DNA from: Ignavibacteria bacterium
GTDB lineage: Bacteria; Bacteroidota; Ignavibacteria; Kapaibacteriales; UBA961
Direction of reading: 5' to 3'
Length of the DNA stretch: 64,000 nt
Assembly (NCBI GenBank): GCA_016873735.1
Contig: VGWD01000002.1
Coordinates: 124,001-188,000 of the forward strand
The notes under the pieces were generated by a model. It made no database searches and was not told the DNA's origin. It saw only the letters and a list, made by a program, of their open reading frames with translations. The position numbers and the translations under genes were made by a program. Shown in pieces: positions 4,411 through 13,898 of the stretch (within the stretch, counting starts at the first letter, position 1; each line of letters opens with the position of its first letter).

Positions 4411-5502
4411 TCATACCATGGTTTGAAGTTCAGCGCAAGCTTTAATCACATTTTCAGGGGAGATGTCCTTCACCGTTTGTGTCTCTGAATACACAGCTCG
4501 ATGAGGAACGCCATAAGGAAGCCACTCTTCTTTTGCTTTATCGGGCAAAAAACAATAAAGTCCGATCATTGGACATTGTGCAGCACTTCCAATATGCAAA
4601 AATCCTGTATCGGGGGAAATGCCCCATGCAGCATGTTTCAAAGCCTCTCCAATTTCCAAGACATGTCTATTGAATGGATAATGTCGAATATTCTCGAATC
4701 CTTGCATTATGCTGTTCAACATTTCAGAATCAGTGCTCAAACCAAATAATAATGCTTGCTTTCCATTCTGAAGCAAATAATCGACCAATATGCGATAGGA
4801 TGAACTATTCCAGCGATTACGTTCCTGCCCGACAGATACATTGATGGCAATGTAATTATTCTCCTCAATACCTAATTCCCTTAATGTATTCAGAGCATTC
4901 TCAGCAAACTGTTGGGAAGAAGGAAGTATTGCTCGGGCATCATGTTCTTGGCGGAGAATTCCAAATGTTTCAGATCCGAGTGCGAGCATTTTATCCGACA
5001 TGGATCTCATATTAGCGGCTTGCTTTGATTGAGATGAATAATATATCGCATATTGATCGCCTGCAAACACTGAGCTACTTACTGTATGCTTCCCTGATAA
5101 CAATGCGGTGAGAATGCCGTTTTTTGATGCTTGGGATGTCAGGCAATTCACGATGATGTCGAAATCCATTGAACGAAATTTTCGTAATTCTTTCAAATGA
5201 AGAAGCGGTGCATGTAATATCGACTTATCTACGATGTGAATTACATCGATGAAATCACAATGTTCTATGATGGAAACATTTGCTTTTGTGCACATAATAT
5301 GCAATTCCATAAGCGGAAAATGTTCCTTTACCATAAGCAGCATGGGCAATGTGCTGATCATGTCACCCAAAGCATCATGCCGTAAGAACAATGCCTTTGT
5401 TCCATTGCTTACGATGAATGGAAATGTCGCGGGATTTGGCGAGAATATCACTTTGGCCATTGCATTCCCAATGGAACGTACATATTGAATTAATCTATTC
5501 AT
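4411..5502 (-). CDS. Glycosyltransferase family 9 (heptosyltransferase-like)
   Basis: A 363-residue GT-B enzyme of the ADP-heptose:LPS heptosyltransferase family. Support: FLRHDALGDMISTLP near the N-terminus (the RxDxLGD motif), SVGQERNRWNSSSY at the second-domain entry, and SPDTGFLHIGSAAQCPMIGL, the donor-binding motif near the C-terminus. It likely adds a sugar to lipopolysaccharide core or a related glycan at the cytoplasmic membrane; the sugar is unknown. Its ATG overlaps the stop of the upstream GT2 gene by 4 bases, so the two probably work on the same glycan. Confidence 0.9.
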   Translation of the reverse strand: MNRLIQYVRSIGNAMAKVIFSPNPATFPFIVSNGTKALFLRHDALGDMISTLPMLLMVKEHFPLMELHIMCTKANVSIIEHCDFIDVIHIVDKSILHAPLLHLKELRKFRSMDFDIIVNCLTSQASKNGILTALLSGKHTVSSSVFAGDQYAIYYSSQSKQAANMRSMSDKMLALGSETFGILRQEHDARAILPSSQQFAENALNTLRELGIEENNYIAINVSVGQERNRWNSSSYRILVDYLLQNGKQALLFGLSTDSEMLNSIMQGFENIRHYPFNRHVLEIGEALKHAAWGISPDTGFLHIGSAAQCPMIGLYCFLPDKAKEEWLPYGVPHRAVYSETQTVKDISPENVIKACAELQTMV

Positions 5503-6380
5503 CGCCGTAATTCATAATTTCTATATTCAAAGATTCTTTTGCCTGTCAAGCGCTCAAAAGCATCGCAGACAGCAACTGCGAGAGGACGCTGTATCGATCG
5601 GGAGGGATCAAAAGCAGATGTCCATTGAGCATCTTCTGAAATTTTAACCAGCATGCATTTCGGATGAGTTCCTGAAAAGCGTTTCAATTCATAGCAAGCG
5701 GGAAATTCTTCTGATGTGGGAAGATGTTCTTCGAGCCAAGCATCATCATGATAAAGTCTTCCAAAAGCAGCTTGTTTTTTTACATAAGCTGTGGGATTGC
5801 GAACCCAACCATAATGATATACATATGCTTCGCATTGCATGACTCTAAGTTTTCGATATGAATCCTTGTCAATGTGCATGCGAAATCCCTGAGCATCTCT
5901 CCATGAGGTGACATGTGCATTCCGTTTGAATGCGCGTATTTCTTGTCGATACCATTGTCTACCGACACCAACATACTCATAGCTGCCAAAAAAGTGATGA
6001 TAATGAAACAATAAACCATCAATCTCGGGTCTGTTATCAGCTTCTTTCATGGAGTTCAGGATTGCTTGCATATCCTGCTCATGCAACACTTCATCCGCTT
6101 GCAAATAGAGAATCCAATCACCAGTGCAGGCATTCAGGGCTATATTTGTTTGTTGGGCTAATATTTGACCCCCTTCACGAAGATTATCATCCCAAATCGT
6201 CTCGATTATCACAATCCTTGGATCTTGAAGTGATTGTATATAGGACAAAGTATCGTCTTCTGAATTCCCAATGGCAATAACCACCTCATCACAGATGGAT
6301 AGAAGAGAATTGAGGGATTCTCTTACAGGATAGCCCAGCATAAAGCCATTTCTTACAAATGTACAACCGCTTATGGTCAT
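5499..6380 (-). CDS. Glycosyltransferase family 2
   Basis: A 293-residue GT-A enzyme. It opens TISGCTFVRNGFMLGYP, typical of GT2 proteins of the TPR/SunS-like branch (N-terminal CTFVRNG), then has CDEVVIAIGNSEDDT (nucleotide-sugar binding) and GDWILYLQADEVLHEQ, where the catalytic DxD appears as QADEV. First gene of a two-gene unit with the GT9 enzyme downstream. The donor and acceptor are unknown; surface polysaccharide or LPS modification is the likely role by context. Confidence 0.87.
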   Translation of the reverse strand: MTISGCTFVRNGFMLGYPVRESLNSLLSICDEVVIAIGNSEDDTLSYIQSLQDPRIVIIETIWDDNLREGGQILAQQTNIALNACTGDWILYLQADEVLHEQDMQAILNSMKEADNRPEIDGLLFHYHHFFGSYEYVGVGRQWYRQEIRAFKRNAHVTSWRDAQGFRMHIDKDSYRKLRVMQCEAYVYHYGWVRNPTAYVKKQAAFGRLYHDDAWLEEHLPTSEEFPACYELKRFSGTHPKCMLVKISEDAQWTSAFDPSRSIQRPLAVAVCDAFERLTGKRIFEYRNYELRR

Positions 6381-6486: not shown

Positions 6487-7206
6487 ATGAACTTATCACT
6501 TCTTACCATATTGCTATGCCTCTTGATCGGATCAGGAACAGCATTTTCTCAACAGAATAGTTATGCCATCTCACCAAAGACAATCGACGTGAAATGGGAT
6601 TATACAGAAGATCTGGATATGAGAGCATTTATATCCAGTAATTCGATATTGAATCAGGATATCGAATATACGGTCATTGCACTTGATATTCCTGCCCAAT
6701 GGCTGGAACATGTCATCACGCAATTCTGTGACATACAATCTTGCTATGATTTTCGTTGGTTTAAATTGGGTGATAAAAAAGAAATGAAATTGCCATCAGG
6801 ATCGAAAAATGCAATCATGAAGGTAGATTTCTTATTACCAATGGATACAAGTATCACCATTCAACCTGGTTCAGCAGAAATTGCTCTTGGGTTTAATCTC
6901 AAAGGGGAACCGATGAGCGACACACTCAGATTTATGGTGAACCGTCCGGCAACCGGTATTGCCGAGATTGAAAATCATTCCAAACTGTTGGTGAAGTCAT
7001 TGTCAAATCAACATGTGAGTATAACTCATGCGGATGGAATTGCAAAAGTGTTGATGTATGACCTTCAAGGAAATCTCATTGATCAATATGATTGTGACAA
7101 TTCCCAATTGGCTTTAATATCATTGGAACATGTTACTCGAGGCGCTTATGGAATTCGAGTGATCACCAGAAATGGTAGGGAATACTCAACCATTCATGTG
7201 CAATGA
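6487..7206 (+). CDS. Secreted protein with T9SS type A sorting domain
   Basis: A 239-residue exported protein of unknown function. Residues 1-21 form a signal peptide ending in GTAFSQ. The middle 130 residues are beta-rich with two Cys pairs (CDIQSC) and no family I recognise. The last 80 residues have the T9SS type A layout: VLMYDLQGNLIDQYD, then LEHVTRGAYGIRVITRNGRE, a final Ig-like sorting domain removed or modified on export. It is predicted to be carried across the outer membrane by T9SS. Single-gene unit with its own candidate promoter and a strong terminator. Confidence 0.8.
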   Translation: MNLSLLTILLCLLIGSGTAFSQQNSYAISPKTIDVKWDYTEDLDMRAFISSNSILNQDIEYTVIALDIPAQWLEHVITQFCDIQSCYDFRWFKLGDKKEMKLPSGSKNAIMKVDFLLPMDTSITIQPGSAEIALGFNLKGEPMSDTLRFMVNRPATGIAEIENHSKLLVKSLSNQHVSITHADGIAKVLMYDLQGNLIDQYDCDNSQLALISLEHVTRGAYGIRVITRNGREYSTIHVQ

Positions 7207-7230: not shown

Positions 7231-7257
7231 AAACCCGGGCTTGGCTCGGGTTTTTTT
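7231..7257 (+). terminator. Rho-independent terminator
   Basis: ACCCGGGC-TTG-GCTCGGGT forms an 8-pair stem (one G-U) followed by TTTTTTT, 25 bases after the plus-strand stop. It overlaps the stop codon of the convergent GH2-like gene. Read on the minus strand it lacks a T-tract. Confidence 0.9.
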
Positions 7258-9856
7258 ATGAGAATGTACTGAAATAATAGTAGAGATAGCTGAATAAGCT
7301 CACTTTGCTGGAATAGTATGTGAGGAGTAATCCGCTAATAAGAATAAGCAATCCCGAGCCGGAAGCATACACATATAGTGAGGGCACATCAAAAACGACC
7401 GATGTGGATTTCAGCATGCGTCCATAATACCAAACAAACAGGGCGGACATCAAAAGGATAAGCCACATTGCCGATCCTGTGGCAGAAAGAACTTTGAACA
7501 AAGCCAGTGCAATGGGTAATAGGAGTAAAAATGGAAGTGCCGACCAAACAGATATGGTGAAAGCATCAATGAAGAATAGTCTGGTCCCGGTTATGAATGC
7601 CGCAAATAAAATAATTCCTGCGACCAATGCATGCATGCCAATGCCAATCAAACTAAAGAAGAAAAAGCCAAGTTCAGGAGTCCAGGTGATTTCATTGAGC
7701 AATGAGCGCAACCAGCCTGTTGGTAGTAAAATCATGTACAAATATTCAGTTCCGAAAGAACTCCGAAATACAAACAGCATGGTTGAAACAACGACTGCCA
7801 AAGTAGCTGAGCTGAGCAATCCGACGGATAATGTTTGGCTCAATGAAAGCAATCGTTGGTCACGAATATCGGAATAGAAATTATACGGCCTGATCAATGC
7901 TCTTAGCATATACTCCCGCATGCGTCTGTATTTTGAAATCAAGACGAAAAATGCAATCCCCAAACTGAAACTAAGTAGAATGAAAATCAATGGTGTATCA
8001 CTATTGGTGGTTCCCGAGCGAAGTAATGGTTCTTTTTCATCATTCAACAATGCTTTCAACATTGTGTATGACAATCTTGGTTGCCTTGTCAAATCGGTTA
8101 ATCCGGTCGTGCTGATATGCTGATCTTCCGGATCGGTTATGGTGATTGCACGAGCGGTGATGAAATCATTGAAACTCCAAATAATGATTCCTCCGATGCC
8201 GCATTGTTGAACTGTTCTATACCCATCGCGGATATATTGTGCTTGTGATTCAACAGACAAAGGATCTGAAAATCCATTAAGATTATTCGGTTGAACTGGT
8301 TTTCCCAAATGAATGATCAATGGTTTACTTCCTGCAAGCCTTTTCATGCGGAGAATTTCTTTTTTCTGAATGTCTCCGGTTTCCCAGCGTGTCGAAGATC
8401 GACCAATCAGAAAATCAGTGTATTGCAAGTCAACCGATTTCGTACCGAAACGTACAGATTTGTATAAGAGCTTGGATCCAAATGATCTAAAGAAAGACCC
8501 AATTTTTTGCAGATATGCTTTGCTATGTTTGGAGCTCTCCTGCAAACCATCGGATAATCCATATCCAAGTATGCAAGGTTGTCTGTCATATGCATTAGCC
8601 ATACGCATGGCTATGTTTGAAATTCTAACGAGGAAATCATCTTCATTCAATAAGCTTGAGGGATAATCATAAACAGGCAAGTCGGAGAGAATGAAAATAC
8701 CATTCACATTACATTGGTGAACAAAATATGGATGTGGATTTCCTGAACGTATTCTGACAGCATTCACACCAAGAGTTTTTAATGACAAAATATCTCTTTG
8801 GATTTGCTGAGCAGTTATTGTTTGTCCCAATTGATTTGCATGCTCATAATAATCGACTGCTTTAAGAGTGAATGGCTCATTGTTCAATGAAAATGTAGGT
8901 GCTCCATTCACAAGAATGCTCTTTGCTTTATACAATCCTACCGGTACAGTATAATCATCGATTACATTTCCATTATAGGAAATGCGTATTGTCAAAGCAT
9001 ACAGATTAGGAATCGACGGAGACCACAAAGCAGGGTTGGTGATGCGCAGGTCGAGATTTGTATTAACCGTTCTGTCGCGATCAATAGTGATTGTTTTTTC
9101 AGCCCCATTCGCCACTACCTCACCCGTGCCATATTTTATCAATGTGGCATCAACAGAAAAGGAAAGTTTCTTAAGTGACAATTCACCATACATGTCTTCG
9201 CCACCAAGGCGTTCAATCGCACTAGATCTGATGGTTAATTGTGAAGTCAATTGGCAAGCAGTAAGCTGTTCATTGAAAAATGACTTTATCTGTACATCTT
9301 CTAAGGAAACATGTTGCGCGCCTATCAACATCATTTCACGGACAATTCCTGAATAGGATCTTTGGGCAAAAATGTGACGTGAAGCATGGGCGGGAGGAGG
9401 TGCAATCTGCATCTCTATGAGATTGATTCCGGTTTGTAATTTGGATTCAGGTAATCGAATGGCAAATGGAGCCATGCCTGCAAAATAGCGTCCTACATAT
9501 TTTCCATTGAGATATAATTCAATGTCTTCATTCGTTCCAAGAGAAAACAAATACCAAGTATAAGAATACAATAATTGCTTGTCTATTTTAATGGAGCGGC
9601 GGAAACGTACTTTCCCCGGTCTGCTCTCCGACATGGGAAGGAGTACCTGTTCCCATGAAGAACCGTCATCCTCACTGCGCTCCCAACTACCGGATAAACT
9701 TTTTATGATGCGCGACTGCGAAGGCATGAAGATTCGTAATTGCTCATTTGTGAAGCGTGGATACGATTCTTGGGCATGAATCAATGGAGAATTGAAACAT
9801 GTAAGTGAAAAAAGAATACATGAACAGATGAACAGTCGAATCAGCAAAACATTCAT
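7256..9856 (-). CDS. GH2-like beta-sandwich/TIM-barrel protein fused to a multi-span membrane domain
   Basis: An 866-residue protein. Residues 1-28: signal peptide. About 50-180: sugar-binding jelly-roll as in GH2 beta-galactosidases/glucuronidases (WYLFSLGTNEDIELYLNGK). About 220-310: Ig-like domain (NPALWSPSIPNLYAL). About 315-600: TIM barrel (GVNAVRIRSGNPHPYF; GIIIWSFNDF; RQPRLSYTMLKAL). About 622-860: six or more membrane segments that recall Yip1-type proteins. The GNE motif with the acid/base Glu appears as LSDG (about 434-437), and the segment expected to hold the nucleophile Glu reads KPLIIHLGKP, without Glu. It therefore looks like a catalytically dead glycosidase anchored in the inner membrane, perhaps a sugar-sensing or glycan-binding module. 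The domain calls are by eye; the fusion is in one unbroken frame. Confidence 0.75.
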   Translation of the reverse strand: MNVLLIRLFICSCILFSLTCFNSPLIHAQESYPRFTNEQLRIFMPSQSRIIKSLSGSWERSEDDGSSWEQVLLPMSESRPGKVRFRRSIKIDKQLLYSYTWYLFSLGTNEDIELYLNGKYVGRYFAGMAPFAIRLPESKLQTGINLIEMQIAPPPAHASRHIFAQRSYSGIVREMMLIGAQHVSLEDVQIKSFFNEQLTACQLTSQLTIRSSAIERLGGEDMYGELSLKKLSFSVDATLIKYGTGEVVANGAEKTITIDRDRTVNTNLDLRITNPALWSPSIPNLYALTIRISYNGNVIDDYTVPVGLYKAKSILVNGAPTFSLNNEPFTLKAVDYYEHANQLGQTITAQQIQRDILSLKTLGVNAVRIRSGNPHPYFVHQCNVNGIFILSDLPVYDYPSSLLNEDDFLVRISNIAMRMANAYDRQPCILGYGLSDGLQESSKHSKAYLQKIGSFFRSFGSKLLYKSVRFGTKSVDLQYTDFLIGRSSTRWETGDIQKKEILRMKRLAGSKPLIIHLGKPVQPNNLNGFSDPLSVESQAQYIRDGYRTVQQCGIGGIIIWSFNDFITARAITITDPEDQHISTTGLTDLTRQPRLSYTMLKALLNDEKEPLLRSGTTNSDTPLIFILLSFSLGIAFFVLISKYRRMREYMLRALIRPYNFYSDIRDQRLLSLSQTLSVGLLSSATLAVVVSTMLFVFRSSFGTEYLYMILLPTGWLRSLLNEITWTPELGFFFFSLIGIGMHALVAGIILFAAFITGTRLFFIDAFTISVWSALPFLLLLPIALALFKVLSATGSAMWLILLMSALFVWYYGRMLKSTSVVFDVPSLYVYASGSGLLILISGLLLTYYSSKVSLFSYLYYYFSTFS

Positions 9857-9897: not shown

Positions 9898-11127
9898 TTA
9901 CAATCTTTTTGCCGTTTTTCCGCAATTACAGTCTAGGCATTCCTTGGAAGACAAATTCGCTGAATCATTGAAAAATTCACGAATTGTCTGTGCAACATGA
10001 ACAATTTGCTCTTGAGTCAATTCAGGAAATATGGGAAGTGCCAAAATATCCCTTGATGCACAATCTGAAACAGGGAAAGGGTTGGAAGAAGTGGGAAGCC
10101 CTTTAAAGCAAGGCTGTTCATGGAATGGTATGGGATAATACACTTCAGTCCCTATTCCACGTTCAGAAAGATAAGCCCGAAGAGCATTTCTGTATTGAAC
10201 CCTGATCACAAATTGATTGAATATATGATGATTGGGAGCTTTTTCTGTCTTGTTTGGCATGCCGGGAAGCAATGCGACATTCGCATCATTGAAAGAAGTC
10301 AAGCCGGGGACTTCTGATAAGCCGAATTCCTGAAACAATCGGACATATGTTTCCGCATTATTTCTTCTTGCTTTATGCCATGATTCCAGATAAGGGAATT
10401 TTATGTTCAATACTGCTGCTTGCAAAGCATCGATTCGAAAATTGCCTCCTACGAATCCATGTTTATATCGTTCGATTTGACCATGATTTCTCATTTGTTG
10501 CAAATGAGTGAATAATGCTGAATCATTCGTTGTGATCAATCCTGCATCACCGAATGCTCCAAGATTTTTTGTAGGATAAAATGAAAAACAACCCATCAAA
10601 CCAATTGAACCTACCGGTCTGCCATCGGGCAGCTGAGTCCCAATTGCTTGCGCACAATCCTCTATTACAGGAATGGCATGAGCATTTGCAATCGCCATTA
10701 TTGCTTCCATATCAGCTGCTTGACCAAAGAGGTGAACAGGTATGATCGCTTTTGTTTGTTTGGTGATTGCCGACTCCATGAGCCGTGGATCAATCATGAA
10801 TGTCACAGGATCGATGTCAACAAAAACTGGTGTTGCATGTAGCCGTGATATAACTCCTGCTGTTGCAAAGAATGAAAATGTAGGAAGTATCACTTCATCC
10901 CCAGGACCAATATTAAGGGACATCAAAGCCATTAGCAAGGCATCCGTGCCACTCGAAACTCCCAATGCATGTTGTGTATTGCAATATCGGGCAGATGTCT
11001 CTTCCAAGAGTTCAACTTCTTTTCCAAGTATCAATGATTGAGACTCCATCAAACCAAGAATCTTTGGTTCAATTTGTTCCTTGATGGTGGCATATTGAAG
11101 TTTGAGATCAAGCAGTGGAACATTCAT
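9898..11127 (-). CDS. DegT/DnrJ/EryC1/StrS family sugar aminotransferase
   Basis: A 409-residue PLP enzyme that transaminates nucleotide-linked keto sugars, giving amino sugars for surface glycans. It opens MNVPLLDLKLQYATIKEQ, the family N-terminus. GVSSGTDALLMAL is the phosphate site, VIEDCAQAIG holds the PLP Asp, and FSFYPTKNLGAFGDAG holds the Schiff-base Lys. I start at 11127 because the conserved N-terminus begins there; the 35 extra codons of the longest reading overlap the hairpin after glnN and look like leader sequence. No clear ribosome site is visible. Partner sugar genes are not adjacent, although glycosyltransferases lie about 4 kb away. Confidence 0.92.
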   Translation of the reverse strand: MNVPLLDLKLQYATIKEQIEPKILGLMESQSLILGKEVELLEETSARYCNTQHALGVSSGTDALLMALMSLNIGPGDEVILPTFSFFATAGVISRLHATPVFVDIDPVTFMIDPRLMESAITKQTKAIIPVHLFGQAADMEAIMAIANAHAIPVIEDCAQAIGTQLPDGRPVGSIGLMGCFSFYPTKNLGAFGDAGLITTNDSALFTHLQQMRNHGQIERYKHGFVGGNFRIDALQAAVLNIKFPYLESWHKARRNNAETYVRLFQEFGLSEVPGLTSFNDANVALLPGMPNKTEKAPNHHIFNQFVIRVQYRNALRAYLSERGIGTEVYYPIPFHEQPCFKGLPTSSNPFPVSDCASRDILALPIFPELTQEQIVHVAQTIREFFNDSANLSSKECLDCNCGKTAKRL

Positions 11128-11202
11128 GCAATATGACTTTGAAGGTGTAAAAACGATCTTAATAATCTTCAATTTACGAATTCTCGGACTCTTTAAATGA
11201 AC

Positions 11203-11223
11203 GAAGCCCCATATTGGGGCTTC
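11203..11223 (-). terminator. GC-rich hairpin after glnN
   Basis: GAAGCCCC-AATAT-GGGGCTTC, a perfect 8-pair stem just after the glnN stop on the minus strand. No T-tract follows, so it may be a weak terminator or an mRNA 3' stabiliser. Confidence 0.55.
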
Positions 11224-11228
11224 AGACA

Positions 11229-13406
11229 TCATTTTACAAAGAGCATTTCACGATAATTAGGCATTACTCGCAATGCATCCGGCAATAATCGTTCAATGCG
11301 ATCCGAACATGTTCGAACCGTATTCATCGCAGGAATCACTTTAGCATGTACATGATGGGCTTTTTCATGAATTGTGTCTCCGCCCAACTCTTCATTTGCG
11401 CCATGTAAAACACCCAATGCTTCATGAAGTTCATCTGCAAGGGCTGTCAATTCCTGTATGCCATGTAATACCGCATTGCTATGTACATTCAATTGTTTCA
11501 TGGACAATGCCAATTCAGACTGCTCTTTAAGCACCGACATGGCAGCAGGCAATATCATAGTCGATGCAATCCACTCGGTTGTTTCACCTTCGATATTGAT
11601 TGTTTTGAAATAATGATCAAACATTACTTCAGCTCTTGCTTCCAATTCTCTTTGTGACAATACATGATGTTTTTCAAATAGAGATACATGCTGCGATGAA
11701 TCAAGATGTGGTAAGGCGCTCATGGTATCAGGTAGATTCAACAATCCTCTTTGTTCTGCTTCGGTCTTCCAATCATCTGAATATCCATCACCATTGAATA
11801 TGATTCTTTTATGTTGTGAAATGGTCTCCGATAAAAGCATTTTCAAAGCGAGAGAGAACTCCATGCCTTGATTCTTTTTTTGTTTCAATGAAGCTGTCAT
11901 TTCAAGAATTGCTTCTGAGATGATTGTATTCAACACGGTGATGGGGAATGAAGATGATTGAGAAGATCCCACAGCTCTGAATTCAAATTTATTTCCTGTG
12001 AATGCAAATGGTGAAGTGCGATTACGATCGCCTGCATGACGTGAAAGATGTGGGAGCACGGGCGATCCCAAGCCCAAAAGACCAGCTTCGGGAGTGGCAT
12101 TTGCTTTGCCGGTTTCAATTTGTTCCAATATCGAGCTCAACTGGTCGCCCAGAAATATAGAAATGATGGCCGGAGGAGCTTCATTTGCACCCAATCGATG
12201 ATCATTCGCAGCGGAAGAAACACAAATTCTGAGCAATGCTTGATAGGTGTCTACCGCCTTCATTACAGCTGTGCAGAAAAAGAGGAAAATCATATTTTCT
12301 TCGGGTGTATCTCCGGGTTCAAGTAGATTCAAACCGGTATCAGTGCTCATGGACCAATTTGTATGCTTACCGCTTCCGTTTACGCCCGCAAATGGTTTCT
12401 CATGCATCATGCATACCAAACCATACTTTCTTGCAGTGTTTTTCATCACCTGCATAAGCAATTGCTGATGATCTGCTGCAATATTGGAATGTTCATATAA
12501 TGGTGCTATTTCATATTGTCCGGGAGCAACTTCATTGTGTCTGGTTTTCACCGGCACGCCGAGTCTGTATAATTGATACTCTGCATCAGACATGAAACTC
12601 AATACTCGCTCCGGAATTGAACCGAAATAATGATCTTCCAATTCTTGTCCGCGAGGTGGTTTTGCACCAAAAAGCGTTCTTCCGCATAACATCAAATCGG
12701 GTCTGCGATAAAAGAATTCTTCATCGACCAAAAAATATTCTTGTTCCAATCCAACTGTAGAATACACTTTTTGTGCTTTCACTTCAAAGAGCTGCATAGC
12801 CTGCATTGCAGCTTTATTCAATGCCTCAATTGATCGAAGTATTGGTGTTTTTTCATCAAGTGCTTCTCCTGTCCATGAAGCAAATGCAGTTGGAATGCAT
12901 AATGTTGCACCATTTGAGTGTCGCATGATGAATGCAGGTGAAGTAGGATCCCATGCGGTATATCCGCGTGCCTCGAAAGTTGCGCGTAATCCTCCGCTAG
13001 GAAATGAAGAAGCATCCGGTTCGCCTTGAATGAGTTCTTTTCCTGAAAATTCTGTTATTGCCCCACCTGCAGAATTCGGCGAAACAAAACTTTCATGTTT
13101 TTCTGCCGTACTGCCTGTCAATGGTTGAAACCAATGCGTGTAATGCGTTGCGCCTTTTTCCAATGCCCATTCTTTCATTGCCAAAGCGACAATATCCGCA
13201 ATGGCAGGATCAAGTGGTTCGGCTCTATCAACTGTTGCTTGAAGAGATTTAAATACCGGCTTCGACAATTTGCTGCGGAAGATGTCCATCGAAAGCACAT
13301 CCTCGGCAAATACATTCGTGATATCGGTTGGAATGGATTCTGCTGATCCATGGATTTTCCAATTGTTTACCGCGGCAAGTACATCATAATTGGATGAGAG
13401 CTGCAT
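11229..13406 (-). CDS. glnN: Glutamine synthetase type III
   Basis: Makes glutamine from glutamate, ammonia and ATP in the cytoplasm. The length (725 aa) and N-terminus mark the type III family, common in Bacteroidota and much longer than GSI (about 450 aa). Visible motifs include FSSPSGGLRATFEARGYTAW-like sequence near residue 140, GLEQEYFLVDEEFFYRRPD (metal-site Glu residues), NEVAPGQYEIAP, HEKPFAGVNGSGKHTNWS, and NRTSPFAFTGNKFEFRA with the active-site Arg/Glu cluster. The last 150 residues form the helical type III extension. The Lrp-type gene 36 bases upstream on the same strand suggests nitrogen- or amino-acid-dependent control. Confidence 0.96.
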   Translation of the reverse strand: MQLSSNYDVLAAVNNWKIHGSAESIPTDITNVFAEDVLSMDIFRSKLSKPVFKSLQATVDRAEPLDPAIADIVALAMKEWALEKGATHYTHWFQPLTGSTAEKHESFVSPNSAGGAITEFSGKELIQGEPDASSFPSGGLRATFEARGYTAWDPTSPAFIMRHSNGATLCIPTAFASWTGEALDEKTPILRSIEALNKAAMQAMQLFEVKAQKVYSTVGLEQEYFLVDEEFFYRRPDLMLCGRTLFGAKPPRGQELEDHYFGSIPERVLSFMSDAEYQLYRLGVPVKTRHNEVAPGQYEIAPLYEHSNIAADHQQLLMQVMKNTARKYGLVCMMHEKPFAGVNGSGKHTNWSMSTDTGLNLLEPGDTPEENMIFLFFCTAVMKAVDTYQALLRICVSSAANDHRLGANEAPPAIISIFLGDQLSSILEQIETGKANATPEAGLLGLGSPVLPHLSRHAGDRNRTSPFAFTGNKFEFRAVGSSQSSSFPITVLNTIISEAILEMTASLKQKKNQGMEFSLALKMLLSETISQHKRIIFNGDGYSDDWKTEAEQRGLLNLPDTMSALPHLDSSQHVSLFEKHHVLSQRELEARAEVMFDHYFKTINIEGETTEWIASTMILPAAMSVLKEQSELALSMKQLNVHSNAVLHGIQELTALADELHEALGVLHGANEELGGDTIHEKAHHVHAKVIPAMNTVRTCSDRIERLLPDALRVMPNYREMLFVK

Positions 13407-13442
13407 GATAATCCTGAAGAAAAGGTTGATGAGTTATAAGTT

Positions 13443-13898
13443 TTATTGTAAAGGCAAAGTGAGTGATTCGATATGTGTCGAAAGGACTAAATTTGTGATA
13501 GTTCTTTTGACGCCGGGAATTTGTTGCAATTTTGACAATAATTGCTCCAATGAAGCTGTGTTCGTTGTTCGTATCTTGAGCAAATGAGAGGCATTTCCCG
13601 TAATTGCATGACATTCAAGTAATTCGGGTAATGTTTTGCAAACGGAGATAAAACGCTCATAATAGACGCTTGATTCTATGTCGACAAATACATAAGCAGT
13701 CAAGTCAAAATGAAATGCATCAGATTGCAGAAGGGCATGATACCCTTTAATAATGCCCTGTTCTTCAAGTTTTCTCACATGCTCGCTCACAGCGGCAACC
13801 GATAAACCAACTTGTTCGGCAATATGGCTCAACTGCATTCTGGCATTGGCTTGAAGCAGTGAACAGATATTACGGTCAATTTCTTTGATTTCAGACAT
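13443..13898 (-). CDS. Lrp/AsnC family transcriptional regulator
   Basis: A 151-residue regulator. Residues 5-50 form an HTH (ICSLLQANARMQLSHIAEQ, VSEHVRKLEEQGII), and the rest is a RAM-type effector domain with the turn VKRTITNLVLSTHIES. These proteins form octamers on DNA and respond to amino acids. It is directly upstream of glnN in the same direction, so it probably controls glutamine synthetase and itself. The small molecule sensed is unknown. Confidence 0.92.
   Translation of the reverse strand: MSEIKEIDRNICSLLQANARMQLSHIAEQVGLSVAAVSEHVRKLEEQGIIKGYHALLQSDAFHFDLTAYVFVDIESSVYYERFISVCKTLPELLECHAITGNASHLLKIRTTNTASLEQLLSKLQQIPGVKRTITNLVLSTHIESLTLPLQ

What the first reader, a model, noticed from the sequence alone, without database searches (positions are those of the whole stretch)
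7256..9856. GH2-fold pseudo-enzyme fused to a polytopic membrane domain
The N-terminal 600 residues keep the GH2 sandwich/barrel layout and late barrel motifs, but the two places where the catalytic Glu residues should be read LSDG and IIHLGKP. A block of six or more membrane spans follows in the same frame. A dead glycosidase tied to the inner membrane, facing the periplasm, could act as a glycan sensor or scaffold. I know of no named family with this layout.
Basis: partly seen in the sequence, partly recalled or inferred. Interest (0 to 1): 0.65.

Follow-up and report, generated by a model that had tools for sequence, protein, structure and literature searches.

The report
Dead sugar-enzyme fused to membrane protein
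A bacterial gene carries the body of a sugar-cutting enzyme whose cutting residues are gone, fused to a membrane protein; the fusion is ancient, kept almost everywhere in this group of bacteria, and in most relatives sits right next to the gene for the chromosome-organising protein SMC, which suggests an unrecognised cell-envelope component.

Summary
Window 9856-7256 encodes 866 aa: signal peptide, GH2 sandwich/Ig/barrel, then six hydrophobic spans. Aligned with nine ordinary GH2 proteins, 'LSDG' and 'IIHLGKP' fall on the acid/base and nucleophile sites (G437, H516). Among 85 full-length homologues, 65 have Glu at neither site, 19 at one, and only one at both. Other active-site columns are eroded while structural ones are kept, and the dead barrel is under purifying selection (dN/dS about 0.07).

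It is no local oddity: 179 of 197 genomes of the class score E <= 1e-90, and it recurs in four families outside the class. The membrane half matches Pfam Yip1 in relatives, not in the window protein itself.

New: outside the window's order the gene lies directly upstream of smc in 88 of 96 genomes (0 of 22 inside it). One family keeps only the membrane half, still beside smc. The most conserved stretch is a cytoplasmic loop (RRFRE..DIRDQR).

I read it as a non-catalytic envelope protein whose working end is cytoplasmic, probably tied to SMC or envelope assembly. Anatomy is well supported; function is inferred. The AlphaFold model was too poor for an overlay.

The parts
7256..9856 (-). whole gene, 866 aa, pseudo-GH2 / Yip1-type membrane fusion
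   Evidence: ORF; homologues over full length in 60 of 61 genomes at E <= 0.001, most of them full length
9773..9856 (-). putative signal peptide, aa 1-28 (..IHA/QES)
   Evidence: hydrophobic N-terminus in the family average; cleavage site read by eye
9287..9724 (-). GH2 N-terminal sandwich-like domain, aa 45-190
   Evidence: beta-galactosidase profiles from aa 81-107 on; Pfam Glyco_hydro_2_N weak here (E 0.044), found in 32 of 40 relatives
8927..9286 (-). GH2 immunoglobulin-like domain, aa 191-310
   Evidence: Pfam Glyco_hydro_2, aa 229-308, 43.1 bits
8045..8926 (-). GH2 barrel, catalytically dead, aa 311-604
   Evidence: Pfam Glyco_hydro_2_C, aa 321-394, 30.2 bits; profile match to 8dhe over positions 49-629; dN/dS 0.066 against L071
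8546..8557 (-). lost acid/base site, aa 434-437 LSDG (Glu expected at 437)
   Evidence: 9 of 9 ordinary GH2 have NE here; 10 of 85 homologues have Glu at 437
8297..8317 (-). lost nucleophile site, aa 514-520 IIHLGKP (Glu expected at 516)
   Evidence: 9 of 9 ordinary GH2 have Glu here; 11 of 85 homologues do
7934..7993 (-). first membrane span, aa 622-641
   Evidence: hydropathy maximum at aa 631
7844..7933 (-). basic cytoplasmic loop, aa 642-671, RRxRE..RPYNFYSDIRDQR; most conserved stretch of the family
   Evidence: mean pairwise identity 0.578 against 0.23-0.29 elsewhere, 85 sequences; net charge about +4
7259..7843 (-). Yip1-type membrane domain, five further spans, aa 672-866
   Evidence: Pfam Yip1 matches orthologues over positions 3-171 of 173, one of them over the cut-off; none for this protein itself

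Best explanation
It is a membrane protein built from a GH2 glycosidase that lost catalysis. The GH2 body stands in the periplasm as a folded, non-catalytic ectodomain (shown by sequence: GH2 fold, eroded active site, purifying selection). It hangs on a first span, a very conserved basic cytoplasmic loop, and a Yip1-type five-span domain. The part that cannot be changed is the cytoplasmic loop, and one family drops the ectodomain altogether, so the essential action is most likely the docking of a cytoplasmic partner at the inner membrane, with the ectodomain as an outer handle (binding or scaffolding an envelope polymer or protein). The near-invariant place directly before smc makes SMC, or the envelope genes that follow smc, the likeliest partner pathway: coordination of chromosome organisation with envelope growth. 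Shown: anatomy, loss of the Glu, conservation, smc linkage. Inferred: topology, docking, the SMC connection.
For: GH2 domains; catalytic columns fixed with nine ordinary GH2 and both Glu in 1 of 85 homologues; erosion confined to active-site columns: of 85, RH 1 and 4, HY 14 and 8, NE 10 and 10, nucleophile 11, against 82-85 for W58, P74, N117, G170, W278, P283, D300, G386, D564, G585; dN/dS barrel 0.066, whole 0.049; loop identity 0.578; 88 of 96 directly upstream of smc in the class outside the own order (rows); 38 of 40 fetched loci, among them ten of ten from outside the class; the GH2-less form in f19 beside smc in 7 of 7 fetched loci.
Against: In the window's own order the gene is never next to smc (0 of 22), so the link is not needed there, or is kept without linkage; in one family of the class (f13) it is also mostly lost. 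Gene neighbourhood is indirect evidence. No interaction or localisation is known. The Yip1 assignment rests on relatives: the window protein gives no Yip1 match and a profile-profile comparison with five free-standing Yip1 proteins gave nothing. The structural overlay failed. The order keeps the gene beside sprA in 15 loci and hrcA in 16, which would suggest other roles.
Confidence: 0.4

Rival explanations
1. Periplasmic glycan receptor or lectin: the old active-site cleft still binds a sugar polymer and signals through the membrane domain.
For: The GH2 body is kept in 179 of 197 class genomes at E <= 1e-90 and is under purifying selection; GH2 domains are sugar-binding by origin.
Against: The pocket residues are eroded and differ between members, so no common ligand is visible; one family drops the ectodomain and G248 keeps only a reduced barrel.
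Confidence: 0.2
2. Envelope-assembly factor: it serves lipid A or surface-polymer export, and smc is only an operon neighbour.
For: Downstream of smc lie lpxB-like (21 loci), lpxK-like (11) and acyltransferase-like genes, tpiA upstream (13) (names by eye from sequence); in the window two glycosyltransferase-like genes lie downstream (by eye).
Against: These neighbours are kept much less often (21 and fewer of 80 loci searched) than smc (38 of 80, all of the 38 among the 40 from outside the order).
Confidence: 0.25
3. An active enzyme with relocated catalytic residues, that is, not a pseudo-enzyme.
For: One lineage keeps both Glu (L131: GNEF, TEYG) and 19 of 85 keep one; no good model excludes a displaced acid in the window protein.
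Against: 65 of 85 lack both; the companion residues are lost too; substitutes vary (S, E, H, G, N, C at the nucleophile).
Confidence: 0.08
4. Decaying gene without function.
For: Active site eroded; gene broken over three frames in one genome (G016).
Against: dN/dS 0.049 between window and L071; single full-length frame in most of 61 relatives.
Confidence: 0.02

Closest known systems
Glycoside hydrolase family 2 (beta-galactosidase / beta-glucuronidase; e.g. PDB 8dhe, 3vd3, 3cmg)
   Same: domain order sandwich - Ig - barrel and structural signature residues
   Different: no catalytic Glu pair in 84 of 85 homologues, fused to a membrane domain, next to smc
Yip1 domain family (Pfam PF04893)
   Same: the membrane half of relatives matches over the whole profile; N-terminal side cytoplasmic as inferred
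   Different: extracytoplasmic GH2 domain and extra first span; the window protein itself is below detection; bacterial function of Yip1 proteins unknown to me
NCBIfam beta-galactosidase/beta-glucuronidase equivalogs (e.g. NF007538, NF050095)
   Same: 39 of 40 relatives match at E <= 0.001
   Different: the tables printed show scores far below the curated cut-offs (51-99 bits against 544-1221)

Membership tests
GH2 (as a fold family) | GH2 Ig-like and barrel domains by profile | tested here: met
   43.1 and 30.2 bits, both over the cut-off
GH2 (as an enzyme family) | catalytic Glu pair (NE acid/base, E nucleophile) | tested here: not met
   G437 and H516 in the window protein; both Glu in 1 of 85 homologues
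GH2 (as an enzyme family) | hydrolase activity | not testable with these tools
   needs an assay
GH2 (as an enzyme family) | no Glu displaced into the active site in 3D | tested here: inconclusive
   model of mean pLDDT 45; Foldseek still ranks GH2 structures first but with TM about 0.2
Yip1 (PF04893) | match over the curated cut-off | tested here: inconclusive
   not met by the window protein; met by the orthologue in G015 (39.3 bits against 28.6), near misses in others; 8 of 11 at E <= 1, 10 of 40 at E <= 0.01; profile-profile test negative
Yip1 (PF04893) | five spans after a cytoplasmic N-terminal part | tested here: met
   hydropathy and charge of the family average; prediction only
known beta-galactosidase/glucuronidase equivalogs (NCBIfam) | curated score cut-off | tested here: not met
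   all rows far below it for P0001 and for L127

The most novel reading that the evidence does not exclude
A membrane partner of SMC: a pseudo-glycosidase receptor that reads the state of the periplasmic wall or surface polymers and, through its conserved basic cytoplasmic loop, tethers or regulates the SMC complex at the inner membrane, physically coupling chromosome organisation to envelope growth in a whole branch of the Bacteroidota group.
Probability: 0.2. Interest if true: 0.88.

Novelty: new variant of a known kind. Interest (0 to 1): 0.62.

Why it matters
Genes like this would be annotated as beta-galactosidases by similarity, yet 84 of 85 lack the catalytic pair, and the family is almost universal in its class, single-copy and unnamed. 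A core protein without a name, kept beside smc across many families, is a good candidate for a missing link between chromosome organisation and cell envelope, or for an envelope assembly factor. It also offers a natural dissection: full form, GH2-less form (f19), reduced-barrel form (G248), and one lineage with both Glu still in place (f23).

Tried and rejected
AlphaFold on the window protein with its five permitted relatives gave a poor model (pLDDT 45); no overlay on beta-glucuronidase was possible, and the Foldseek list from it is only weak support. Profile-profile comparison of the membrane domain with five free-standing Yip1 proteins gave nothing; that set was small and very divergent (15-22% identity). 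The idea that the neighbours in the own order (sprA, hrcA-grpE-dnaJ, PAP2, SAICAR synthase, names by eye) reveal the function was dropped: none is kept outside it. The idea of a local decaying gene was rejected. The idea of a split GH2 gene beside the GH2-less form was checked in L145 only (no GH2 ORF read there). Literature: searches for GH2 with Yip1, Kapabacteria/GH/SprA, Yip1 domain bacterial, Ignavibacterium album beta-galactosidase, smc upstream membrane protein, GH pseudo-enzyme transmembrane, YIP1 family protein with smc and a mixed query listed no paper on this fusion, judged from titles and abstract starts. Counts not used: 188 of 296 mixes in ordinary GH2 proteins; the 27 class genomes with an smc row but no printed fusion row are outside the 96.

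Full report
What is there. The gene runs on the minus strand, 9856 to 7256, 866 aa. The plus strand of the stretch is not coding in the stated frame. Pfam finds Glyco_hydro_2 at aa 229-308 and Glyco_hydro_2_C at aa 321-394, both over their cut-offs, and a weak Glyco_hydro_2_N. NCBIfam beta-galactosidase models match from about aa 81 on, far below their cut-offs. A profile of 20 homologues matches solved GH2 structures over positions 49-629 (8dhe, E 8.8e-45). After the barrel come a span at about aa 622-641, a basic loop, and five more hydrophobic maxima. With an N-terminal hydrophobic signal and the net positive loop after the first span, the GH2 part should be periplasmic; this is inference from charge and hydropathy.

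The catalytic sites. Nine ordinary GH2 proteins from the same phylum were aligned with the family. All nine read N-E in the columns of D436-G437 and Glu in the column of H516. Among 85 full-length homologues (46 from the own order, 39 from outside; three truncated rows L005, L008, L011 were left out), Glu stands at both sites in 1 (L131), at the acid/base only in 9, at the nucleophile only in 10, at neither in 65. These 85 were not drawn at random, and the own order is over-represented. On a quick tree of the GH2 part with the two columns masked, the 85 form one side of a branch against the nine, and each site needs at least seven changes (short search, SH-aLRT only, many rows with unlike composition). 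Of 69 columns fixed in at least 8 of the 9 ordinary GH2, the active-site ones are lost in the family (RH 1 and 4 of 85, HY 14 and 8, NE 10 and 10, nucleophile 11) while structural ones stay at 82-85. So the fold is kept and the chemistry is given up, piecemeal.

It is constrained. Between the window gene and its 96%-identical relative L071, dN/dS is 0.049 over aa 31-866 and 0.066 over the dead barrel. Against L072 and L073 the synonymous sites are saturated or nearly so, so those values add little.

How widespread. In 61 relatives, 60 have a match; in two or three draft genomes only pieces are found. In 197 genomes of the class, 188 match at E <= 0.001, and by my count of the table 179 at E <= 1e-90. 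Nine have none, mostly in family f19; seven f19 genomes match only by the membrane half, or at about that score. With the membrane half alone as query, 86 of 296 genomes of the phylum match: the class, and families f31, f34, f49 and f61 outside it, plus one distant match in f43. Other families in that sample (f36, f40 and others) have none. Named records near the window are Ca. Kapaibacterium, Ignavibacteria and a Chlorobiota OPB56 bin, so the window is from that group. The window's genome has no other Glyco_hydro_2_C match, so there is no active GH2 partner in it.

The membrane half. Pfam Yip1 matches the membrane half of relatives over nearly its whole length: G015 at 39.3 bits (cut-off 28.6), G019 just under the cut-off, others lower. 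By single-sequence scans 8 of 11 C-terminal halves match at E <= 1 (best 2.3e-7) and 10 of 40 outside-order proteins at E <= 0.01 (best 5.4e-8). The window protein itself gives no match, and a profile-profile test with five free-standing Yip1 proteins failed. I take the domain as Yip1-type with moderate confidence.

The loop. Mean pairwise identity over 85 sequences is 0.578 for aa 642-671, against 0.23-0.29 for every other region. The stretch reads RRFRE..RPYNFYADIRDQR. It is between the first and second span, hence cytoplasmic on the inferred topology. The most constrained surface is therefore inside the cell.

The neighbour. In 38 of 40 loci fetched from outside the own order (chosen for spread over families, not for neighbours), the gene lies before smc on the same strand, mostly within 30 bases; the two exceptions are f13. 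Pairing the printed rows, 88 of 96 class genomes outside the order have it within 500 bases before smc; of the eight others, four sit at contig ends or have a truncated smc match (G118, G132, G152, G180) and four are f13. Inside the own order it is 0 of 22, with one more lacking an smc row. All ten loci from outside the class are in the linked set. No other neighbour comes close: lpxB-like 21, HAD-like 18, tpiA 13 loci (gene names by eye). In f19, seven of seven fetched loci carry only first span, loop and Yip1 half, again directly before smc (L145, L188-L193). In G248 a 569-aa form has lost the sandwich domains, with a much reduced barrel-like part, then the membrane half (barrel by eye).

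Reading. Two facts point to the cytoplasmic side: the loop is the most conserved stretch, and the ectodomain can be lost while the rest stays beside smc. I therefore favour a membrane protein that docks a cytoplasmic partner, with the dead glycosidase as an outer handle, and I rank SMC and the envelope genes behind it as the likely pathway. That step is inference from gene order. Against it stands the own order, where the linkage is gone.

Known or not. The searched paper library listed nothing on a GH2-Yip1 fusion or on this smc neighbour. A 2025 division of GH2 into subfamilies says that proteins with transmembrane domains were filtered out in its secretion analysis (PMC12243196, passages only), which may help to explain why such fusions go unremarked. 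A Yip1 family review is held (PMC6682643, seen in a listing only). The library lacks most subscription journals.

Noticed in passing
window 6487-7206 (+): 239-aa secreted protein, convergent with the gene, with a C-terminal end that looks like a type IX secretion sorting domain (by eye); kept beside the gene in seven loci of the genus (cluster 15).
   Followed up: no
window 5499-6380 (-) and 4411-5502 (-): Two glycosyltransferase-like genes downstream of the fusion (by eye), kept in the genus; may be surface-polymer genes.
   Followed up: no
window 9898-13898 (-): Upstream genes look like an Lrp/AsnC regulator, a large (725 aa) glutamine synthetase and a DegT-type aminotransferase (by eye), the last ending 41 bases before the fusion gene.
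   Followed up: no
L054-L056, L058, L060, L063, L070, L033, L036-L038, L042-L044, L050: In 15 loci of the own order a very large gene that looks like sprA (type IX translocon) is divergent from the fusion gene.
   Followed up: partly
L171, L176: In two genomes of the own order smc lies beside mreB/mreC/mreD-like genes (by eye).
   Followed up: no
L050 4330-7115: In finished genome G016 the gene is broken over three frames; could be a true loss or a sequencing error.
   Followed up: no
L187 5117-6823 (-): 569-aa form in G248 without sandwich domains, with a reduced barrel-like part and the membrane half.
   Followed up: partly
L131 7082-9721 (+): The one homologue of 85 with both catalytic Glu in place (GNEF, TEYG); may still be an enzyme.
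   Followed up: partly
L167-L169: f19 genomes without any form of the gene have a HisA-like gene beside smc, divergent from it (by eye).
   Followed up: no
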